The notes under the pieces are model-generated. The model made no database searches, was not told the origin of the DNA, and was given only the letters and a program-made list of their open reading frames with translations. The position numbers and the translations under genes were made by a program. 45,119 bases of DNA from Thermoflexus hugenholtzii JAD2 (lineage in GTDB: Bacteria > Chloroflexota > Anaerolineae > Thermoflexales > Thermoflexaceae): positions 1 through 45,119 of the forward strand of contig NZ_FYEK01000032.1 in NCBI RefSeq assembly GCF_900187885.1. Reading direction: 5' to 3'. Positions 1 to 21,887 of the stretch are shown piece after piece; position 1 is the first letter of the stretch, and every line of letters begins with the position of its first letter.

Positions 1-1183
1 CCGGGCCCGGAGGCGCGGGCGAAGGGGGCGCGGGGGTCGCCGCCGCGGGCGCCGGCGCGGGAGCGGGAGGAACAGGAGGGACGCTCCGGGCCGCTCGGGC
101 CTGCTGACAGGCCAGGGCCGCCTCCACGAAGGCCAGCTCCAGGGCGAGCTGCGGCGACCAGGCGCTCCGGAAGTCCGCCGCCGCGGTCATGAACAGGCGG
201 ATCAAACGAGGGAGGACCTCCGGGGGCAAGGCGCGGGCGTGCCGCTGGGCCGCGGCGCGCTGCTCCGGCAGGAGATCCGCCCCGCTGGCATCCCCCCATT
301 GCAGCCACATGACCGCACGCAGGTGTTCCACCAGCTGTCGGGCCAGCTGCGGCGGATGGGCGCCCTCCTCCACGGCGCGGGCGAGGAGGGTCAGCCCGCG
401 GGCCGTCTCCCCTTCGCTCAGGGCCTCCACGATCTCCCCCACCAGATCCCAGCGCCCGGCCCCCAGGGTCCGCTGCACGCGTTCCACCGTGATGGGCTCT
501 TCATCGGCGGCGAGTTGATCCAGCAGGGTCACCGCGTCCCGCAGGCTGCCGGCCGCCTGGCGCCCGATCCAGGCCAGGGCTTCCGGCTCGGCGGAGAGCC
601 CCTCGGCGGCCACGATCTCCTCCAGCCGCCGGACGATCTCGGCCGTCGTCAGGCGGCGGAAATCGAAGCGTTGACAACGGGAGAGGATCGTGGCGGGGAT
701 CCGATGGGGCTCGGTGGTGGCCAGGACGAAGATCACGTGCGGCGGAGGCTCCTCCAGGGTTTTGAGGAGAGCGTTGAAGGCCTCGGTGGTCAGCATATGG
801 GCCTCATCGATGACGTAGACCTTATACCGGGCCTCACTGGGGGAGAAGCGAACACGCTCCCGCAGATCCCGGATCTCATCGATGCCCCGGTTGGAGGCGG
901 CGTCGATCTCGATCAGGTCGATGAGGCGCCCTTCGTGGACCGCCTGGCAGATCCGGCAGCGATCGCACGGTCGCTCCTCCACCGCTTCGGCCAGGCAGTT
1001 GACCGCCTTGGCCAGCAGGCGGGCTGTGGTGGTCTTGCCGGTCCCCCGCGGCCCGGCGAACAGATACGCGTGCGCGATACGACCCAGGCGCAGGGCGTTG
1101 CGCAGGGTGCGGGTCACATGCTCCTGGCCGACCACTTCCTCGAACCGTCGGGGGCGCCACTTGCGGTAGAGGGCCAACGGCAT
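1..1183 (-). CDS. dnaX: DNA polymerase III subunit gamma/tau (partial, C-terminus outside window)
   Basis: Clamp-loader ATPase of the replicative polymerase. Read on the minus strand from ATG at 1183 the protein begins MPLALYRKWRPRRFEEVVGQ, the standard DnaX opening. Walker A GPRGTGKT lies at residues 44-51, a zinc-binding Cys set at about 63, 73, 76 and 79, Walker B DEAH near residue 125, and the SRC sensor motif (LSRCQRFDF) follows. After about residue 350 the protein becomes Pro/Ala-rich, as in the linker of tau-type proteins, and runs off the window start, so the length is unknown. A promoter lies 38 nt upstream of the start codon. No programmed-frameshift signal was seen in the visible part. 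Confidence 0.96.
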   Translation of the reverse strand, partial: MPLALYRKWRPRRFEEVVGQEHVTRTLRNALRLGRIAHAYLFAGPRGTGKTTTARLLAKAVNCLAEAVEERPCDRCRICQAVHEGRLIDLIEIDAASNRGIDEIRDLRERVRFSPSEARYKVYVIDEAHMLTTEAFNALLKTLEEPPPHVIFVLATTEPHRIPATILSRCQRFDFRRLTTAEIVRRLEEIVAAEGLSAEPEALAWIGRQAAGSLRDAVTLLDQLAADEEPITVERVQRTLGAGRWDLVGEIVEALSEGETARGLTLLARAVEEGAHPPQLARQLVEHLRAVMWLQWGDASGADLLPEQRAAAQRHARALPPEVLPRLIRLFMTAAADFRSAWSPQLALELAFVEAALACQQARAARSVPPVPPAPAPAPAAATPAPPSPAPPGP

Positions 1184-1220
1184 CGGCGGCACGCTCCGGA
1201 GTCCTGCTGATCTGGCCGCC

Positions 1221-1249
1221 ATTATAACCGACGGGCGGGAAACCAGCAA
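1221..1249 (-). promoter_or_regulatory. Sigma-70 promoter of dnaX
   Basis: On the minus strand, -35 TTGCTG (1244-1249) and -10 TATAAT (1221-1226) are separated by 17 nt. Transcription would begin near 1214, about 30 nt before the dnaX start codon. Confidence 0.7.
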
Positions 1250-1280
1250 CGCAGCGCCCTGCCCCCGCCCCGCAGGACAT

Positions 1281-1308
1281 GTAGGGCAACTGCGAGCAGT
1301 TGCCCTAC
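1281..1308. repeat. Palindromic repeat, family B
   Basis: Perfect inverted repeat: arm GTAGGGCAACTGC, two-base centre GA, then the reverse-complement arm. A near-identical palindrome sits at 30410-30437 and a half copy at 34430-34440. It lies between the divergent dnaX and cold-shock promoters. Confidence 0.8.
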
Positions 1309-1322
1309 GCTCCCGGCGAAAC

Positions 1323-1350
1323 TTGACAAAATCCCCGATCCGATTATGAT
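1323..1350 (+). promoter_or_regulatory. Sigma-70 promoter of the cold-shock gene
   Basis: TTGACA at 1323-1328 and TATGAT at 1345-1350, spacer 16 nt. Predicted start near 1357 gives a leader of about 230 nt before the cold-shock start codon. Confidence 0.75.
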
Positions 1351-1404
1351 AGAAGCAAATCGGAACGCAGAACCGGAGCGCGAGGGGGATGTTCTGAGGG
1401 TTTG

Positions 1405-1446
1405 GCCGTCGGGTCAACGCAGGACTCGCCCGACGGCTTTTTGTTT
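1405..1446 (+). terminator. Intrinsic-terminator-like hairpin in the cold-shock leader
   Basis: Perfect 9-bp stem GCCGTCGGG (1405-1413) with CCCGACGGC (1429-1437), 15-nt loop, followed by TTTTTGTTT. It lies about 50 nt after the predicted start and 140 nt before the coding region, so it would either attenuate the gene or end a short separate RNA. Confidence 0.65.
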
Positions 1447-1586
1447 GGAAGCCCAGGCGCCTGCTCACCCCCGAGGCCGCGCCTCCCTCCCTCGGATCCC
1501 CTTCTTCCGGTCGGATCGTTCCGCAACCTGAAGCAGGGAGTCCGCCCCCCGCGGGCTTCAAAAATCTTTCTGAAGGAGTTGCAGAG

Positions 1587-1808
1587 ATGGCTGGTCAGCG
1601 TGTCAAGGGCACCGTCCGCTGGTTCAACCGGACCAAGGGGTACGGCTTCATCCGGCCGGACGAAGGGGACCGCGACGTCTTCGTCCACTACACGGCTATC
1701 GTCGGCCAGGGGTTCCGCAACCTCGAGGAGGGCGAGCGGGTGGAGTTCACCATCCGCGAGACCCCCAAGGGCCTCCAGGCCGAGCAGGTCGTGCGCCTGT
1801 CCGAGTGA
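1587..1808 (+). CDS. csp: Cold-shock domain protein
   Basis: A 73-residue protein, one complete OB-fold cold-shock domain and the usual CspA-family length. RNP1-like KGYGFIRP (about residues 17-24) and RNP2-like DVFVHYTAI (about 30-38) are both present, so it should bind single-stranded RNA or DNA as an RNA chaperone in the cytoplasm. AAGGAG lies 9 nt before the ATG. The gene is monocistronic: its own promoter at 1323 and a strong terminator at 1838. The long leader with an internal terminator-like hairpin suggests control at the RNA level; cold-shock genes of this family are often controlled through their 5' UTR. The growth condition in this thermophile-like genome is unknown. Confidence 0.95.
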
Positions 1809-1837
1809 ACGCGGTGCCGGCTCCACCCGACCCGGGG

Positions 1838-1875
1838 CAGCGGGAGCCTCCGAACGGAGGCTCCCGCTGTTTTTT
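1838..1875 (+). terminator. Rho-independent terminator of the cold-shock gene
   Basis: Perfect 15-bp stem (1838-1852 with 1855-1869) around a minimal loop, followed by six T residues. Confidence 0.92.
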
Positions 1876-2011
1876 ACGAGGCGCCGTCAAGAGACCTCCT
1901 TAGAGCGCGCCAATGTCAGGGGCGAGTTGCGTCTCTCGACGATGAGAAGCAGAATACCTTCGTCGGAATACGCAGCGGACGCTCGGCCTGGATCATGCGT
2001 GGAGCGCGGGT

Positions 2012-3697
2012 ATGCCCATTCGGGTGCTGGACCCGGAGCTGGTGGCTCAGATCGCGGCCGGGGAGGTGATCGAGCGCCCGGCCTCGGTGGTCAAGGAGCT
2101 GGTGGAGAACGCCCTGGACGCCGGCGCCTCGCGGATCGAGGTGGAGACGGAGGGGGGCGGCCGTTCGCGCATCCGGGTCGCCGATGACGGGTGCGGCATC
2201 CCGGCCGCGGAAGTGGCCCTCGCCTTCGCCCGCCACGCCACCAGCAAGATCTCCGCGCCCGAGGACCTCTTCCGCATCGCCACCCTGGGGTTCCGGGGCG
2301 AAGCCCTGGCGGCCATCGCCGCCGTCGCCCGGGTCACCTGCCGGACCCGGGCTGTCGGCGAAGAGCTGGGCACCTATGTTCGCATCGAAGGAGGGGAGAT
2401 CCGGGAGCAGCGGCCCCTGGCGCGTCCCCCGGGCACGGAGATGATCGTGGAGGACCTGTTCTTCAACACCCCGGCCCGCCGGAAGTTCCTGAAGGGGGAA
2501 GGGGCGGAGCGGCGGGCCATCGACCTCTGGATCAGCCGCTACGCCCTGGCTTACCCGAGGGTCGCGTTCTTCCTCCGGCATGACCGGCGGGAGGCCCTGA
2601 CGCTCCCTGCCGCTCGCGAGCCCCGCCATCGCCTCGCCGCCCTCTACGGGGCAGAGGTGGCGGAAGCCCTCCTGGAGGTGCACGAAGCGGACGAAGAGAT
2701 GCGGATCTCGGGATGGATCAGCCCGCCGGGGATGGATCGCCCGGACCGCCAGGAGATGGTCTTCTTCGTGAACGGACGCTGGGTGCAGGACCGCATGCTC
2801 CCGGCGGCGGTGCTGCAGGCCTATCACACCCTGCTTCCCGCCGGCCGCTTCCCCTGGAGCTTTCTCTGGATCGATCTCCCCCCCGATGCGGTGGATGTGA
2901 ACGTTCACCCGGCCAAGATCGAGGTCCGTTTCCGGGATCCGGATCGGGTGTTCCGGCTGGTCCAGCGGGCCGCCCACCGAGCCCTCCGCCAGACGGCCCC
3001 TCGCGTCTTTCAGCCCGTCGCCTCCCCAATGGCACCCGCTTCGATGCCTGCCCGTCCCCTCCCGCCCGGGAAGCCCGCGGATGTCCTTCCGAAGCCATTC
3101 GGGGAGGAGGCCACCGGCCTTCCCCCGCTCCGGGTGATCGGGCAGCTCCAGGCGACCTACATCGTCGCCGAGGGGCCGGATGGCCTTTACCTGCTGGACC
3201 AGCACGCGGCGCACGAGCGGGTGCTGTATGAGGAGCTCATGGCCCGGCGTCAGGAGGGGCCGCTCCCGGCCCAGCCGCTGCTGCAGCCGGTGCTGCTGGA
3301 GGTCTCACCGGAGGAGGGGAGCCTGCTGGAGGAACACCAGGAGGCGCTGCAGGAACTGGGGTTCTGGATCGAGCCCTTCGGCCCCCGCGCCGTCCGCGTG
3401 CGGGCCATCCCGGCCGTCCTCTCCGCCGAAGCGATTCGGGCGGTGATCCAGGACCTCCTGTTCGATCTGCACGAGGCGCGACGGCCGATGGAGGTGGCTT
3501 TAGAAGCCCGCTGGATCCGGAGCATCTGCAAGCGCGCCGCCGTGAAGGCCGGGCAGGTCCTCAGCATGGAGCAGATGCAGCATCTGGTGCGGGCGCTGGA
3601 GCGATGCGCCATGCCCTGGACCTGCCCGCACGGCCGGCCGACGGTGTTGCGGTTCCCGCTGGGCCAGCTGGCCCATCAGTTCGGACGGGAGCCATGA
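2012..3697 (+). CDS. mutL: DNA mismatch repair protein MutL (endonuclease type)
   Basis: The 561-residue protein couples mismatch recognition to strand incision. The N-terminal GHKL ATPase has ELVENALDAGA (about residues 30-40), DDGCGIP and GFRGEAL. The C-terminal dimerisation domain carries the metal-binding endonuclease motif DQHAAHE with a second Glu (residues 396-407), the CKRAAVKAG element near 505-515 and CPHGRP near 540. These motifs mark MutL proteins that nick DNA themselves, as in bacteria lacking MutH. A Pro-rich linker (about 330-365) joins the halves. The start follows GGAG with about 7 nt spacing. No mutS lies in this window; the next gene is convergent. Confidence 0.97.
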   Translation: MPIRVLDPELVAQIAAGEVIERPASVVKELVENALDAGASRIEVETEGGGRSRIRVADDGCGIPAAEVALAFARHATSKISAPEDLFRIATLGFRGEALAAIAAVARVTCRTRAVGEELGTYVRIEGGEIREQRPLARPPGTEMIVEDLFFNTPARRKFLKGEGAERRAIDLWISRYALAYPRVAFFLRHDRREALTLPAAREPRHRLAALYGAEVAEALLEVHEADEEMRISGWISPPGMDRPDRQEMVFFVNGRWVQDRMLPAAVLQAYHTLLPAGRFPWSFLWIDLPPDAVDVNVHPAKIEVRFRDPDRVFRLVQRAAHRALRQTAPRVFQPVASPMAPASMPARPLPPGKPADVLPKPFGEEATGLPPLRVIGQLQATYIVAEGPDGLYLLDQHAAHERVLYEELMARRQEGPLPAQPLLQPVLLEVSPEEGSLLEEHQEALQELGFWIEPFGPRAVRVRAIPAVLSAEAIRAVIQDLLFDLHEARRPMEVALEARWIRSICKRAAVKAGQVLSMEQMQHLVRALERCAMPWTCPHGRPTVLRFPLGQLAHQFGREP

Positions 3698-13863: not shown

Positions 13864-15072
13864 TTATGGGGCCAGGCCCTTCGGGTCTGGGACCGGGGCC
13901 GGAGCGGCGCGGGAGGCCGGGACCCGCATCGCTTGCTCCAGGGCCTGCGCGACCAGCTCCTCCATCCGCACCCGCGCTTCGATCTCCCGCACGGTCTCCA
14001 GGGCAGGTCGGGTGATCACCCGGGGCGGCATCAGGAACTGGCAGCAATCCTCCCCGGGCATGATCGAGAGCTCATAGGTCCCAATGGCCCGCGCCCGCTC
14101 GATGATCTCAACCTTGTCCATCCCGATGAGCGGGCGCAGGATGGGCATGGTCGCCGCGTCCTCGATGACGGACAGGCTCTCCAGGGTCTGGGAGGCCACC
14201 TGCCCGAGGGAATCGCCGGTCACCAGGGCCCGCCCGCCCTCCCGGCGGGTGAGGGCCTCCGCCACCCGGACCATCAGGCGGCGGTAAAGGATGAGGCGAT
14301 AGGGGGCGGGGGCGGCCAGGACGATGGCGCGCTGGGGCTCCCCGATGGGCACGATGTAGAGCCAGGGGTTCATCCCGTAGGGCTGGAGCTGGCGCACCAG
14401 GGCCGCGGCCTTGGCCTCCGAGGCGACCCAATCTCCGAAGGGCCCGCTGTGGAAGTGGATGGGGATCACCTCGCAACCCCGCTTGAGCATCAGATAGCCG
14501 GCCACGGGGGAGTCGATGCCGCCGGAGAGCAGCAGCCCCACCTTCCCGCTGACCCCGACCGGCAGTCCGCCGGGACCCCGATGGCGGGCGAAGTAGACCA
14601 GGGCGGTGTTGGTGGCGATCTCGATGTAGGCGACCCAGGCGGGCTCCTCCAGGTTCACCCGCCAGCCGGTGCGGCGCTGGACCTCCGCGCCGATGTGGCG
14701 CTCGATCTCCTGGGAGGTGAAGGGGAAGGATTTATCCGCCCGGGAGGCCCGAATGCAAAAGGAGGGGACGGGCTCGGAGGGGAGGTGGCGCAGGACGATC
14801 TCCGTGAGGACGTGGAGATCCTTCGCAGCGGGGATGGCCGGCGCGAAGTAGGCGATGCCGAAGACCGTGCGCAGGCGCTCGGCCCAGAGGGCCTCCGGGA
14901 TCGGGCGCGGAAGCCGGACCAGGAAGCGGCCGGGGAGGCGCTCCACGAGGGCCGGCCCGACGTCCCGGAGCCGCTCCTCGATCCGCCGGGCCAGGGTCTG
15001 CTCAAAGAAGCCCCGGTTGCGGCCTTTCAGGCCGATCTCCGCATAATGCACCACGGCATACCGGCTTTCCAT
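13864..15072 (-). CDS. thiI: tRNA 4-thiouridine synthase ThiI (no rhodanese domain)
   Basis: 402 residues. It adenylates and thiolates U8 of tRNA and may supply sulfur for thiamine. N-terminal ferredoxin-like/THUMP region (HYAEIGLKGRNRGFFEQTL at about 8-26), PP-loop SGGIDSPVAGY near residue 185, and the conserved Cys pair in GEDCCQFLMPP near 355. The C-terminal rhodanese domain of E. coli ThiI is absent, as in Bacillus ThiI, so a separate cysteine desulfurase must donate sulfur. The start at 15072 has a GAGG/GGGG-type ribosome site; 14 in-frame residues upstream lack family support. Confidence 0.94.
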   Translation of the reverse strand: MESRYAVVHYAEIGLKGRNRGFFEQTLARRIEERLRDVGPALVERLPGRFLVRLPRPIPEALWAERLRTVFGIAYFAPAIPAAKDLHVLTEIVLRHLPSEPVPSFCIRASRADKSFPFTSQEIERHIGAEVQRRTGWRVNLEEPAWVAYIEIATNTALVYFARHRGPGGLPVGVSGKVGLLLSGGIDSPVAGYLMLKRGCEVIPIHFHSGPFGDWVASEAKAAALVRQLQPYGMNPWLYIVPIGEPQRAIVLAAPAPYRLILYRRLMVRVAEALTRREGGRALVTGDSLGQVASQTLESLSVIEDAATMPILRPLIGMDKVEIIERARAIGTYELSIMPGEDCCQFLMPPRVITRPALETVREIEARVRMEELVAQALEQAMRVPASRAAPAPVPDPKGLAP

Positions 15073-15219
15073 CGCCCCTTCCTCGTCCTGGGTCCGGATC
15101 TGGGTCCGCTCCACCGCGCCGGACGTCGGCCTTGACGCCGATTGAAATCGGCCTCTCCGGGCGCTGTGCGCCGGGCGTCGGCCTTCGCCGACGCAAAGAA
15201 GGATTCTTCGGTCGGCGCA

Positions 15220-15315
15220 GGCCGACCGCCGGCCGAAGGCCTTCCAAAGGTCGAATTCATTCGACCCGTGGGCCGACCGTCGGCCGAAGGCCTCCCCAGG
15301 TCGAATTCATTCGAC
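15220..15315. repeat. Tandem 45-bp hairpin-rich repeat, two copies
   Basis: Two direct copies (15220-15265 and 15271-15315) differing by a few bases, each with GGCCGACCG, CGGCCGAAGGCCT and the hairpin GTCGAATTCATTCGAC. Degenerate related sequence flanks it (15130-15200 and 15320-15350). The 314-nt gap 15073-15386 otherwise holds only the tRNA terminator; no clear thiI promoter was found. Confidence 0.75.
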
Positions 15316-15350
15316 GCGCAAGCCTCCCTGGGCCCAATTCCTTCGGCGTG

Positions 15351-15378
15351 CAAAAGGGGCGCGGCCTTCGCGCCCCTT
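15351..15378 (-). terminator. Rho-independent terminator after tRNA-Val
   Basis: On the minus strand, AAGGGGCGCG pairs with CGCGCCCCTT around a 5-nt loop, followed by TTTTG. It lies 8 nt after the tRNA 3' end. Confidence 0.85.
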
Positions 15379-15386
15379 CTCCACCA

Positions 15387-15459
15387 TGGGCGAGGCAGGA
15401 CTCGAACCTGCGACCCTCCGCTTGTAAGGCGGATGCTCTCACCCCTGAGCTACTCGCCC
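15387..15459 (-). tRNA. tRNA-Val, anticodon TAC
   Basis: A 73-nt cloverleaf on the minus strand: acceptor arms GGGCGAG and CTCGCCC, D-stem GCTC/GAGC, anticodon stem TCCGC/GCGGA with loop CTTACAA (anticodon TAC), T-arm GCAGG TTCGAGT CCTGC, discriminator A. CCA is not encoded. Its first 10 nt are also the last codons and TAG stop of pth, so the tRNA must be cut from a pth-tRNA transcript or initiated within pth. Confidence 0.97.
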
Positions 15460-16157
15460 GTTTTCCCCGCCGGCCGGGTCGCCGGCTGGGTGTTGAAGCG
15501 GTTCATCGCGGCCTCCAGCCCCTCCTCAATGAACGTTCGCATCGCCTGAACCGCTCGGTGTAACACCCCCTCCAGGATCTCCTCCTCATCCGGCCGGAAG
15601 TCCTGGAGGACGTAATCCGCTGGGTCCATCTGCCCCGGAGGGCGCCCGATGCCGATGCGCAGGCGCGGGAACTCGGTGGTCCCCAGGGCCTGGACGATGG
15701 ATTTCATCCCGTTATGGCCGCCCGGGCTGCCCCGGGGCCGCAGCCGGATCGCCCCCAGCGGGAGGTCCATGTCATCGTAGACCACGAGCAGCCGGTTCAG
15801 CGGCACACGGTAGGATGAAACCAGGGGACGCACGGAGCGGCCGCTCAGGTTCATGAACGTCTGCGGCTTGGCCAGGATCACCCGCTGGCCGGCCAGGCGC
15901 CCTTCGGCGAGGAGGGCCTGATGCTGGATACGTCGGAAGGCCATTTGATGGGCCTGGGCGAAGAGGTCCACCGCTCGGAAGCCGACGTTGTGGCGGTTGT
16001 GGGCATACTCCGGCCCCGGATTCCCCAGGCCCACGATCAACACCGGAGGCCCCTCCAGGATGTCCTCCTCCGCTGCCTCTCCCCCAGCGGGCTCCGGCCG
16101 CAGCGCCCGGAGGATCCGATCCAGCCGCTCCAGGGCGTCTTCGTAGTGCAGAGTCAC
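15450..16157 (-). CDS. pth: Peptidyl-tRNA hydrolase
   Basis: It releases peptides from peptidyl-tRNA. LIVGLGNPGPEYAHNRHNVG holds the active-site Asn and His, and KPQTFMNLSG, VVYDDMDLPLGAIRLRPRGS and GGHNGMKSI are typical. From GTG 16157 the protein has 235 residues with a 38-residue N-terminal extension outside the family. An alternative GTG at 16043, six nt after GGAGGGG, gives 197 residues, close to the usual length of about 190; either may be used. The C-terminal codons and TAG stop lie in the tRNA-Val gene. Likely co-transcribed after rsfS (37-nt gap). Confidence 0.93.
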   Translation of the reverse strand: MTLHYEDALERLDRILRALRPEPAGGEAAEEDILEGPPVLIVGLGNPGPEYAHNRHNVGFRAVDLFAQAHQMAFRRIQHQALLAEGRLAGQRVILAKPQTFMNLSGRSVRPLVSSYRVPLNRLLVVYDDMDLPLGAIRLRPRGSPGGHNGMKSIVQALGTTEFPRLRIGIGRPPGQMDPADYVLQDFRPDEEEILEGVLHRAVQAMRTFIEEGLEAAMNRFNTQPATRPAGKTGE

Positions 16158-16194
16158 CGGTTCGTTTCTCCCATGGGGATTCCGACGCGGCGGC

Positions 16195-16593
16195 TCACTG
16201 GGCCCGCACCAGGATCGGCGCCCCGCGCCACAGGGATTCCAGGTCGTAGTAGCGACGCTGCGGGGGCGCGAACACGTGGACGATGATGTCCCCGTAATCC
16301 ATCAGCACCCACCCGGAGGCGGGATCTCCCTCCACCCGCGCCGGGTCCACCTGATATCCCCGGGCCGTGGCCTCCGCGATCCCCTCCACAATCGCTTTCA
16401 GCTGCCGCTCCGAGGTCCCGGTACAGATGATAAAGTAATCGGCGAAAGTCGCCCGGGACCGGATGTCCATCAACACCACGTCCATCCCTTTTTTGTCCAG
16501 GATGGCGTCCACAATCCGATGCGCCAGATCCAGCGTGTTCAGGGATCCACCTCCCGGGTCGAGGATCGATGAGCCCTCCGGGTCGGTTCCCAA
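16195..16593 (-). CDS. rsfS: Ribosome silencing factor RsfS
   Basis: 132 residues as drawn. It binds ribosomal protein L14 and blocks subunit joining in starvation. Family features: LDLAHRIVDAILDKKGMDVVLMDIR, ATFADYFIICTGTSERQLKAI and GWVLMDYGDIIVHVF. The start is uncertain: TTG at 16593 lies only about 3 nt after the predicted transcription start, while a good GGGAGGTG site sits 5-6 nt before an in-frame CTG at 16542, which would give a 115-residue product closer to the conserved family start. Confidence 0.92.
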   Translation of the reverse strand: MGTDPEGSSILDPGGGSLNTLDLAHRIVDAILDKKGMDVVLMDIRSRATFADYFIICTGTSERQLKAIVEGIAEATARGYQVDPARVEGDPASGWVLMDYGDIIVHVFAPPQRRYYDLESLWRGAPILVRAQ

Positions 16594-16602
16594 CCCTTTC
16601 TC

Positions 16603-16631
16603 ATTCTATCACACCGGGCTCGATCTTCCCA
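16603..16631 (-). promoter_or_regulatory. Extended -10 promoter for rsfS-pth-tRNA-Val
   Basis: Minus strand TGATAGAAT: extended -10 TG element plus TAGAAT (16603-16608). The -35 at 17 nt (TGGGAA, 16626-16631) is weak. Confidence 0.5.
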
Positions 16632-16821
16632 TCGCGATCTTCTCCGTCTTCAGGCATCCCTTCAGCCGGGATCGATCCGCAAGGGGGAGGGCGCCGGAGC
16701 CACCGGGCCCTGGCGCGGTTCCCGGGTTTGCGAAAACGGTGATAAGGTAAATCGAGCTCGAAGGATGCGGGCGGACGTCCCCCTATTCCGATCCGGAATC
16801 CTTTGCAGACGGGAGGTGAGC

Positions 16822-18177
16822 ATGGCGGAGGCGTTCCTCGAGGCGGGGATGACGGCGGAGGAGATCGTGGCCCTCTGCCGGCAGTATACGATCTATGAGT
16901 GGTCCGCCCAGGGGATGGTGGATCCCATCCCGGTGGTGCGGGCGAAAGGGGTTTACTTCTGGGACGCCAGAGGGCGGCGCTATCTGGATTTCAACTCTCA
17001 GCTGATGAACGTGAACATCGGCCATGGCGACGAGCGGGTCATCCGGGCTATCCAGGAGCAGGCCGCCCGGCTTCCCTATGTGAACCCCTTCATGGCCACG
17101 GAGCCCCGTGCCCGGCTGGGCCGCATGCTGGCGGAGATCGCCCCCGGGGATCTGAAGAAGGTCTTCTTCACCCTGGGCGGGGCGGACGCCAATGAGAACG
17201 CTATCAAGATCGCCCGCCTCTACACCGGGCGTCACAAGATCATCGCTCGCTATCGCTCCTATCACGGGGCCACGGCGGGGGCCATCACCCTCACCGGCGA
17301 CCCGCGGCGCTGGCCCGCCGAGCCCGGCATCCCCGGCGTCATCCACGTGATGGATCCCTACCGCTATCGATGCCGCTGGTGCATGCGCGAGGAGCGCTGC
17401 ACTCTGGATTGTCTGAATCATGTGGAGGACGTCATTCAGTTCGAAGGCCCGCACACCATCGCCGCCGTCTTCATCGAGACGGTCACGGGGACCAATGGGA
17501 TCATCATCCCGCCCGATGGGTATCTGGAGGGCTTGCGGATGCTCTGCGATCGCTACGGCATCCTGCTGATCTGCGACGAGGTGATGAGCGGCTTCGGGCG
17601 GACCGGAGAATGGTTCGCCGTGAACCACTGGAAGGTGGTTCCGGATTTGATGACGGTGGCCAAGGGCCTGACCTCGGGCTATCTGCCCCTGGGCGCGGTG
17701 CTGATCTCAGAGCGCATCGCTGAGTTCTTCCGGGATCGGCCTTTCCCGGGCGGGCTCACGTATAACTCTCACCCCCTCTGTCTGGCCGCGGCCATCGCCA
17801 CCCTGCAGGTTTATCAGGAGGATCGCCTCATTGAGAACGCCCGGCGCATGGGGGAGATCCTGGCCCGGGAGCTTGCCCGGCTGAAGGAGCGCCATCCCAG
17901 CGTGGGGGACGTGCGCAGCATCGGCCTGTTCGGGGTGGTGGAGCTGGTCAAAAACCGCGAGACCCGCGAGCCCCTGGTCCCCTTCAACGCCCAGCCCCGT
18001 GAGATGGGGATCATGAACCGTTTGAAAGAGTTCTTCCTCCAGAACGGGCTCTACACCTTCATCCGCTGGAACACCTTCTTCACCAACCCTCCCCTCTGCA
18101 TCCGGGAGGAGGAGCTGATGGAGGGGCTGGAGATCATCGATCGGGGGCTGGAGATCACGGACGACGCGGTCGCATAG
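16822..18177 (+). CDS. Class III PLP-dependent aminotransferase
   Basis: 451 residues. PLP-fold type I, omega-aminotransferase group. Motifs: LDFNSQLMNVNIGHGDERV, FFTLGGADANENAIKIARLYTGRHKI, YRSYHGATAGAITLTGD, CDEVMSGFGRTGEWFAV and the PLP lysine in TVAKGLTSGYLPLGA (about residue 280). A Cys cluster (CRWCMREERCTLDC, about 190-203) is unusual and could bind metal. Relatives act on taurine, beta-alanine, 4-aminobutyrate or similar amines; the substrate cannot be read. The ATG at 16822 follows GGGAGGTGAG; panE lies 48 nt downstream on the same strand, so beta-alanine/pantothenate chemistry is one possibility. Confidence 0.88.
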   Translation: MAEAFLEAGMTAEEIVALCRQYTIYEWSAQGMVDPIPVVRAKGVYFWDARGRRYLDFNSQLMNVNIGHGDERVIRAIQEQAARLPYVNPFMATEPRARLGRMLAEIAPGDLKKVFFTLGGADANENAIKIARLYTGRHKIIARYRSYHGATAGAITLTGDPRRWPAEPGIPGVIHVMDPYRYRCRWCMREERCTLDCLNHVEDVIQFEGPHTIAAVFIETVTGTNGIIIPPDGYLEGLRMLCDRYGILLICDEVMSGFGRTGEWFAVNHWKVVPDLMTVAKGLTSGYLPLGAVLISERIAEFFRDRPFPGGLTYNSHPLCLAAAIATLQVYQEDRLIENARRMGEILARELARLKERHPSVGDVRSIGLFGVVELVKNRETREPLVPFNAQPREMGIMNRLKEFFLQNGLYTFIRWNTFFTNPPLCIREEELMEGLEIIDRGLEITDDAVA

Positions 18178-21555: not shown

Positions 21556-21862
21556 CGGGAACCTCCCGGTTCAGGATGGGCGCCTCGCCGGAAGGGGCGA
21601 GGCGTGCCCATCCCGAACGGGGGCCGGAAACGAGCGGCCTCCCTGCCGGAACGGACAGGGAGGCCGCGTGAGGCCCGAGGGAAAGTCGGGACGGTGCAGG
21701 CGGCGCTCCTACCCCTTCCGCGAGGCTCGGAGGAGGCCGAGGCGGGCGACCGGGCTTCCATGGTCCGCGGTGGCGGCCATGGTTACCGTTGCGGGACAGC
21801 GCCGGACTTTCACCGGACTTCGCCTTTCAGCCCTGCCATCCGGGGCGTCGGGCACCTCGGCC
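21556..21862 (-). promoter_or_regulatory. Cobalamin (B12) riboswitch with expression platform
   Basis: Minus-strand aptamer closed by GGCCGAGG (21855-21862) with CCTCGGCC (21735-21742). It contains the conserved core GTCCGGTGAAAGTCCGGCGC (21799-21818), CTGTCCCGCAACGGTAA just after it, and the B12-box GAAGCCCGGTCGCCCGCC (21741-21758). Downstream are two large hairpins, 21634-21667 (12-bp stem) and 21574-21613 (long stem with a small bulge). The ribosome site of btuF lies in a short GAACC/GGTTC hairpin. Such elements normally shut expression when adenosylcobalamin is bound. Confidence 0.93.
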
Positions 21863-21887
21863 GTATTCAGTTGTCCGACACAGGCCA

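What the first reader, a model, noticed from the sequence alone, without database searches (positions are those of the whole stretch)
15387..16157. pth reading frame ends inside the tRNA-Val gene
The last three codons and TAG stop of peptidyl-tRNA hydrolase overlap the first ten nucleotides of tRNA-Val(TAC). RNase P cleavage at the tRNA 5' end would remove the pth stop codon from the message, so mature tRNA production and full pth mRNA are mutually exclusive on one transcript. The pairing is suggestive because Pth recycles tRNA from peptidyl-tRNA; a feedback link is possible but unproven.
Basis: partly seen in the sequence, partly recalled or inferred. Interest (0 to 1): 0.55.

Follow-up and report, generated by a model that had tools for sequence, protein, structure and literature searches.

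The report
Gene's stop codon lies inside tRNA
In the hot-spring bacterium Thermoflexus the message for the tRNA-recycling enzyme Pth ends with a stop codon that belongs to a neighbouring valine tRNA, so cutting out the tRNA should leave an enzyme message without a stop; this is a real, genus-wide member of a rare but already described kind of gene overlap, and no regulatory role has been shown.

Summary
The genome is Thermoflexus hugenholtzii JAD2. All 9 held genomes of its order (one genus) have the identical overlap. None of 141 other pth loci examined shows a same-strand tRNA downstream of pth in the DNA seen. Anatomy in 9 of 9: an extended -10 before rsfS, then rsfS, pth, tRNA-Val and a strong hairpin. 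The tRNA has no recognisable promoter of its own, whereas 26 of 37 lead tRNAs of the closed relative do; it is the only gene for this anticodon there. So pth message and tRNA most likely share one transcript, and RNase P maturation should leave a non-stop pth mRNA. tmRNA and SmpB are present in 9 of 9; ArfB and RqcH were not found in the one genome checked. Against a regulatory switch: the Pth tail is nearly unconstrained, a neutral simulation keeps the overlap 66% of the time, and 27 of 48 tRNAs carry TAG at positions 8-10. Such overlaps were surveyed in 2014. Verdict: a new member of a known kind, probably tolerated; an ArfA-like circuit remains possible but untested.

The parts
15450..16157 (-). 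pth, peptidyl-tRNA hydrolase, 235 aa, GTG start; stop TAG at 15452-15450
   Evidence: ORF; PF01195 residues 40-222; TIGR00447
15387..15459 (-). tRNA-Val(TAC), 73 nt, CCA not encoded
   Evidence: ARAGORN; Rfam RF00005 75 bits; single copy of this anticodon among 48 tRNAs of closed relative G001
15450..15459 (-). 10-nt overlap: third base of Thr233 codon, Gly234, Glu235, TAG = tRNA nucleotides 1-10; stop = U8 A9 G10
   Evidence: sequence; identical in 9 of 9 genomes
15460..15491 (-). Pth tail codons 223-232 (15491-15462) and the first two bases of the Thr233 codon (15461-15460), outside the tRNA; the RNase P 5' product would end ...AAA AC
   Evidence: tail codons 223-232 pN/pS 0.66 against 0.09 in core
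15352..15380 (-). intrinsic-terminator-like GC hairpin with T-rich 3' end, within about 10 nt of the tRNA
   Evidence: folds at -26.4 to -33.5 kcal/mol in 9 of 9 genomes; not listed by the strict consensus scan
16195..16593 (-). rsfS (ribosome silencing factor), upstream gene of the unit; start codon uncertain
   Evidence: PF02410, TIGR00090; upstream of pth in 9 of 9 loci
16603..16611 (-). extended -10 promoter-like element TGATAGAAT upstream of rsfS
   Evidence: conserved in 9 of 9; pattern chosen after seeing the alignment; no promoter called by the strict consensus scan
13864..15114 (-). thiI (tRNA U8 4-thiolation), downstream after the hairpin; a neighbour, probably not in the unit
   Evidence: PF02568, TIGR00342; seen in 7 of 9 loci; of the two misses L003 holds only 319 bases after the tRNA, but L004 holds 1434 without a match

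Best explanation
rsfS, pth and tRNA-Val(UAC) form one transcription unit: promoter before rsfS, terminator just after the tRNA. pth has no stop of its own between its core and the tRNA, so its reading frame is closed by the UAG that the tRNA carries at positions 8-10. Ribosomes that reach this stop before the tRNA folds and is cut make complete Pth. Once RNase P cuts at G1 the tRNA is freed and the remaining pth mRNA ends in AAA-AC (AAG-AC in some relatives) without a stop; ribosomes on it stall and are released by tmRNA-SmpB, which tags the product. I read this as a tolerated consequence of hitching a low-demand tRNA to an mRNA unit, with a modest lowering of Pth yield, not as an evolved sensor. 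Shown by sequence: the overlap, its presence in all nine genomes of the genus, the missing tRNA promoter signal, the conserved -10 and terminator-like hairpin, and genes for tmRNA and SmpB. Inferred: co-transcription, RNase P cleavage of this transcript, non-stop translation, tagging, and lack of a selected function.
For: Overlap identical in 9 of 9 genomes. No promoter upstream of the tRNA in 9 of 9 (best score 6-7; random windows average 6.55), while 26 of 37 lead tRNAs of G001 score 9 or more against 2.5% of 3000 random windows. Conserved TGnTA[GA]AATGA before rsfS in 9 of 9. Terminator-like hairpin after the tRNA in 9 of 9. Single tRNA-Val(TAC) among 48 tRNAs in G001; GTA is 3 of 181 valine codons in seven window genes, so demand looks low. 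tmRNA 9 of 9, SmpB 9 of 9, RNase P RNA over its cut-off in 6 of 9. Tolerated, not selected: tail pN/pS 0.66 against 0.09 in the core; neutral simulation leaves all nine without an upstream stop in 66% of 2000 runs.
Against: No transcript data. The promoter test uses a sigma-70 consensus; five of 37 lead tRNAs of G001, Val(TAC) included, have neither a -10-like hexamer in the last 35 bases nor a score of 9, so another promoter type could be missed. The strict scan of 15000-17000 lists no promoter and one terminator-like site elsewhere (16453-16441), about what shuffles give. RNase P RNA was not found in 3 of 9 drafts (completeness 94, 87 and 76%; in the first two only 65 of 113 and of 95 candidates were scored). 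The simulation uses one tree from 96 sites, an estimated transition bias of 18.5, and no insertions or deletions.
Confidence: 0.68

Rival explanations
1. ArfA-like control: tRNA excision makes most pth mRNA non-stop, so Pth is normally tagged and destroyed; when trans-translation is saturated, Pth lacking only its last three residues, with an intact catalytic domain, accumulates and clears peptidyl-tRNAs.
For: The RNase P product would encode residues 1-232, and the PF01195 match ends at 222. tmRNA and SmpB 9 of 9; only two RF-1-domain genes (read as RF1 and RF2, so no ArfB) and no NFACT_N (RqcH) gene in G001, so tmRNA is the only rescue route found there. The arfA case is described in passages of PMC3985003 and PMC8012679.
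Against: No sign of selection on the overlap; not seen outside one genus; no measurement of cleavage or tagging. Without ArfA or ArfB it is unclear how untagged truncated Pth would be released except by drop-off.
Confidence: 0.14
2. Two separate RNA populations: an unrecognised promoter inside pth makes most of the tRNA, pth mRNA is long and mostly uncut, and the overlap has little effect.
For: Alternative promoter types are not covered by the scan; four other lead tRNAs in G001 also lack a clear promoter.
Against: No -10-like hexamer in the pth gene is conserved across the nine genomes (only TATGAT at -320, in 3 of 9), and synonymous sites near the pth 3' end vary (codons 211-220: 8 of 10 invariant residues; codons 221-230: 2 of 5).
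Confidence: 0.13
3. Feedback: levels of Pth or of free tRNA-Val steer the choice between tRNA and full pth mRNA.
For: Only the functional link between a tRNA-recycling enzyme and a tRNA gene.
Against: I have no candidate sensor (none was searched for beyond folding the leader); the tRNA reads a codon that is rare in the seven genes counted; the pairing was not seen in 141 other loci.
Confidence: 0.03

Closest known systems
[quoted passage not shown] section 17 and passages read)
   Same: Protein gene upstream, same strand, runs into a tRNA so that tRNA maturation should remove the stop; 250 such cases among 115,660 valid t(m)RNA genes; its top families are mostly one tRNA gene in a group of close relatives, as here.
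   Different: The table names only the commonest family (FtsW-type genes with tRNA-Ile in Helicobacter, 44 cases). The 250 cases are not listed in what I read, so a pth case could be among them; the word 'Pth' does not occur in the main text.
selB-selC overlap (PMC8124441; parts 1-2 of 3 of the text read)
   Same: Translation-factor gene overlapping a tRNA; model of non-stop mRNA and alternative expression after tRNA processing.
   Different: There the whole tRNA is nested, or the stop lies at nucleotides 46-48, the tRNA is the factor's own partner, and the trait is found in several groups and lost in some. Here 10 nt, general Pth, one genus.
smpB-ssrA overlap in Carsonella (PMC4131195, passages read)
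   Same: A translation quality-control gene whose mRNA should become non-stop on maturation of the downstream RNA; possible feedback noted by the authors.
arfA non-stop regulation in E. coli (PMC3985003, PMC8012679, passages read)
   Same: Message loses its stop by a specific nuclease; product expected to go to trans-translation; truncated protein could be active.
   Different: RNase III or early termination at a stem-loop, reported with experiments; here RNase P at a tRNA, inferred only.

Membership tests
Protein gene-tRNA overlap expected to give non-stop mRNA | valid tRNA and a functional (domain-positive) upstream gene on the same strand overlapping it | tested here: met
Protein gene-tRNA overlap expected to give non-stop mRNA | the stop codon lies 3' of the RNase P site | tested here: met
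   TAG at tRNA positions 8-10
Protein gene-tRNA overlap expected to give non-stop mRNA | one transcript carries both | tested here: inconclusive
   no tRNA promoter, terminator-like hairpin only after the tRNA and upstream -10 by sequence; no RNA data
Protein gene-tRNA overlap expected to give non-stop mRNA | non-stop mRNA is actually formed and tagged | not testable with these tools
   needs RNA ends and tag trapping
arfA-type non-stop regulation | truncated product keeps its active domain | tested here: met
   PF01195 match ends at residue 222, the cut lies two bases after the Lys232 codon; activity itself untested
arfA-type non-stop regulation | trans-translation present | tested here: met
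   tmRNA and SmpB 9 of 9
arfA-type non-stop regulation | arrangement kept by selection | tested here: inconclusive
   searches are compatible with neutrality
arfA-type non-stop regulation | protein level rises when trans-translation fails | not testable with these tools
   needs experiment

The most novel reading that the evidence does not exclude
tRNA maturation itself sets the level of Pth: RNase P turns nearly every pth message non-stop, so Pth reports on spare tmRNA capacity and rises, as an active three-residue-shorter enzyme, exactly when ribosome rescue is overloaded and dropped-off peptidyl-tRNAs must be cleared, in a bacterium in which no other rescue factor was found.
Probability: 0.1. 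Interest if true: 0.72.

Novelty: new member of a known kind. Interest (0 to 1): 0.37.

Why it matters
It is a clean natural case in which a tRNA and an mRNA for an enzyme essential in E. coli appear to share one transcript with no separate tRNA promoter, so the competition between translation termination and RNase P, and the load that tRNA maturation puts on trans-translation, could be measured directly. It also shows that a common tRNA motif can serve as a gene's only stop codon.

Tried and rejected
Rejected: artefact of one assembly (same junction in nine assemblies). Rejected: a special CCA signal; 6 of 48 G001 tRNAs were flagged by my loose search for CCA near the 3' end, and this tRNA is among the 42 without. 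Not found: other recognised genes overlapping tRNAs in G001; nine other long frames into tRNAs, chosen by eye, have no Pfam match. Rejected as evidence of function: genus-wide conservation. A predicted GC hairpin in the pth tail just before the tRNA is changed or broken in some genomes, L009 most, so I did not build on it. Led nowhere: a DNA search with the junction in 11 genomes of the phylum, own included, matched the others essentially through the tRNA part (query 102-174; one match began at 88); papers with 'pth gene', 'tRNA-Val' and 'peptidyl-tRNA hydrolase', none held; the listings showed me no further bacterial case, though I opened none of their other papers.

Full report
What is there. 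On the minus strand, rsfS (16593-16195), pth (16157-15450) and tRNA-Val(TAC) (15459-15387) follow each other. The last ten nucleotides of pth are the first ten of the tRNA: the third base of the Thr233 codon, GGC, GAG and TAG. The stop is therefore U8-A9-G10 of the tRNA. thiI follows at 15114-13864.

Whose genome. The genome behind the window has 3,216,964 bases in 78 contigs. That is exactly the size and scaffold number printed for Thermoflexus hugenholtzii JAD2, with 48 tRNA genes, in passages of PMC8129789.

Conservation. Nine genomes of the order are held, all in one genus; pth is found in 9 of 9, and in 9 of 9 the tRNA sequence and the ten-base junction are identical. Outside the genus I examined three sets. 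First, the 21 other class loci that one search returned. Second, 40 further class loci, chosen from the listed places (a cut list; 271 of 298 class genomes had a match, the nine of the genus included) to spread over families. Third, 80 named loci, the best that one capped scan of the genome collection returned. ARAGORN shows no same-strand tRNA downstream of pth in any of the 141. Downstream DNA seen, counted from the end of the match: 265 (L015) to 1,522 bases in the 21, 761 to 890 in the 40, 938 to 3,000 in the 80. One named locus (L165) has an opposite-strand tRNA 61 bases downstream. A record labelled Thermoflexales by its depositor (L124, 60% identical) also shows none. In 18 of the 21 class loci Pth ends within ten residues of the conserved MNRFN-like end of the core; the other three have 11, 13 and about 30 residues. 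The Thermoflexus protein has a 13-residue tail.

Transcription unit. In the closed relative G001 I scored the 100 bases upstream of all 48 tRNAs for a sigma-70 promoter. Of 37 tRNAs that are first in their cluster, 26 score 9 or more, against 2.5% of 3000 random windows from the same loci. tRNA-Val(TAC) scores 7, and 6 to 7 in the nine genomes, which is the random level (mean 6.55). It is one of five of the 37 with neither such a score nor a -10-like hexamer in the last 35 bases. Upstream of rsfS the element TGnTA[GA]AATGA is present in 9 of 9 genomes although the surrounding DNA has diverged. I chose that pattern after seeing the alignment, and a strict consensus scan finds no promoter in 15000-17000. 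Just after the tRNA a GC hairpin with a T-rich end folds at -26.4 to -33.5 kcal/mol in 9 of 9; the same strict scan does not list it. I conclude, by inference, that promoter-rsfS-pth-tRNA-terminator is one unit and that this tRNA has no main promoter of its own. G001 has one gene for this anticodon. Its codon GTA is 3 of 181 valine codons in seven window genes, so a weak supply may be enough. thiI is seen after the tRNA in 7 of 9 loci; L003 is cut 319 bases after the tRNA, and L004 holds 1,434 bases without a thiI match. In the 141 other loci neither rsfS nor thiI was found beside pth at E 1e-4 (flanks of unequal length).

Consequence. RNase P cutting at G1 would leave pth mRNA ending AAA-AC, without a stop. 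tmRNA and SmpB are present in 9 of 9; the tag reads ANRDYAALPLAA in three of the four loci examined and ANRNYAALPLAA in the fourth. RNase P RNA passes its cut-off in 6 of 9; the three misses are drafts of 94, 87 and 76% completeness, and in two of them not all candidates were scored. In G001 only two RF-1-domain genes were found, which I read as RF1 and RF2, so no ArfB, and no NFACT_N gene, so no RqcH. The truncated Pth would keep its whole catalytic domain. None of these steps has been seen in RNA or protein.

Is it selected? The tail codons 223-232 have pN/pS 0.66 against 0.09 for the core. Evolving the tail neutrally on a tree from 96 four-fold sites leaves all nine lineages without an upstream stop in 66% of 2000 runs. 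So fixation in the genus does not argue for function. The stop itself is no coincidence to explain: 27 of 48 tRNAs of G001 have TAG at positions 8-10, so a frame that enters such a tRNA in the right phase ends there.

Compared with what is known. PMC4131195 (section 17 and passages read) asked this very question of 2031 bacterial genome projects. It found 250 upstream same-strand overlaps among 115,660 valid t(m)RNA genes, and calls its top families few evolutionary events, mostly one tRNA gene in closely related genomes. PMC8124441 (parts 1 and 2 of 3 read) proposes the same non-stop logic for selB and tRNA-Sec. The arfA precedent is in passages of PMC3985003 and PMC8012679. A link between tmRNA and Pth in E. 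coli is known to me only as a title in a reference list (Singh and Varshney 2004; the paper is not held). I saw no report of pth in such an overlap in the listings. The 250 cases of PMC4131195 are not listed in the parts I saw, so this one could be a relative of a case counted there.

Verdict. The overlap is real, present in all nine genomes of the genus, and structurally well defined. It belongs to a known kind and is most likely tolerated. The ArfA-like reading is open and easily tested.

Noticed in passing
15216-15353: Between the tRNA hairpin and thiI lies a short array (period about 50, 2.2 copies) with two exact copies of the near-palindrome GTCGAATTCATTCGAC (mean 0.01 matches in shuffles with up to 2 mismatches).
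   Followed up: partly
21724-21874: Cobalamin riboswitch on the minus strand, 49 bits.
   Followed up: no
16044-16157: Pth has an N-terminal extension of about 38 residues before the Pfam domain; it evolves with pN/pS 0.30, so it is partly constrained.
   Followed up: partly
13864-15114 and 15452: The downstream gene thiI is the enzyme family that thiolates U8 of tRNAs (one search names it tRNA uracil 4-sulfurtransferase; the position U8 is recalled); U8 is the first base of the pth stop codon. Probably coincidence.
   Followed up: no
G001:C1:1149580-1149673: ARAGORN calls a tRNA-SeC (tca) in the closed relative, suggesting selenocysteine use.
   Followed up: no
G001 tRNAs at 1792866, 2285021, 2733470, 3042728: Four other lead tRNAs (two Met, Arg tct, Trp) also lack a clear promoter.
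   Followed up: no
L007, upstream of pth: The rsfS-pth spacer varies from about 20-40 bases in several genomes to roughly 350 bases in this one.
   Followed up: no
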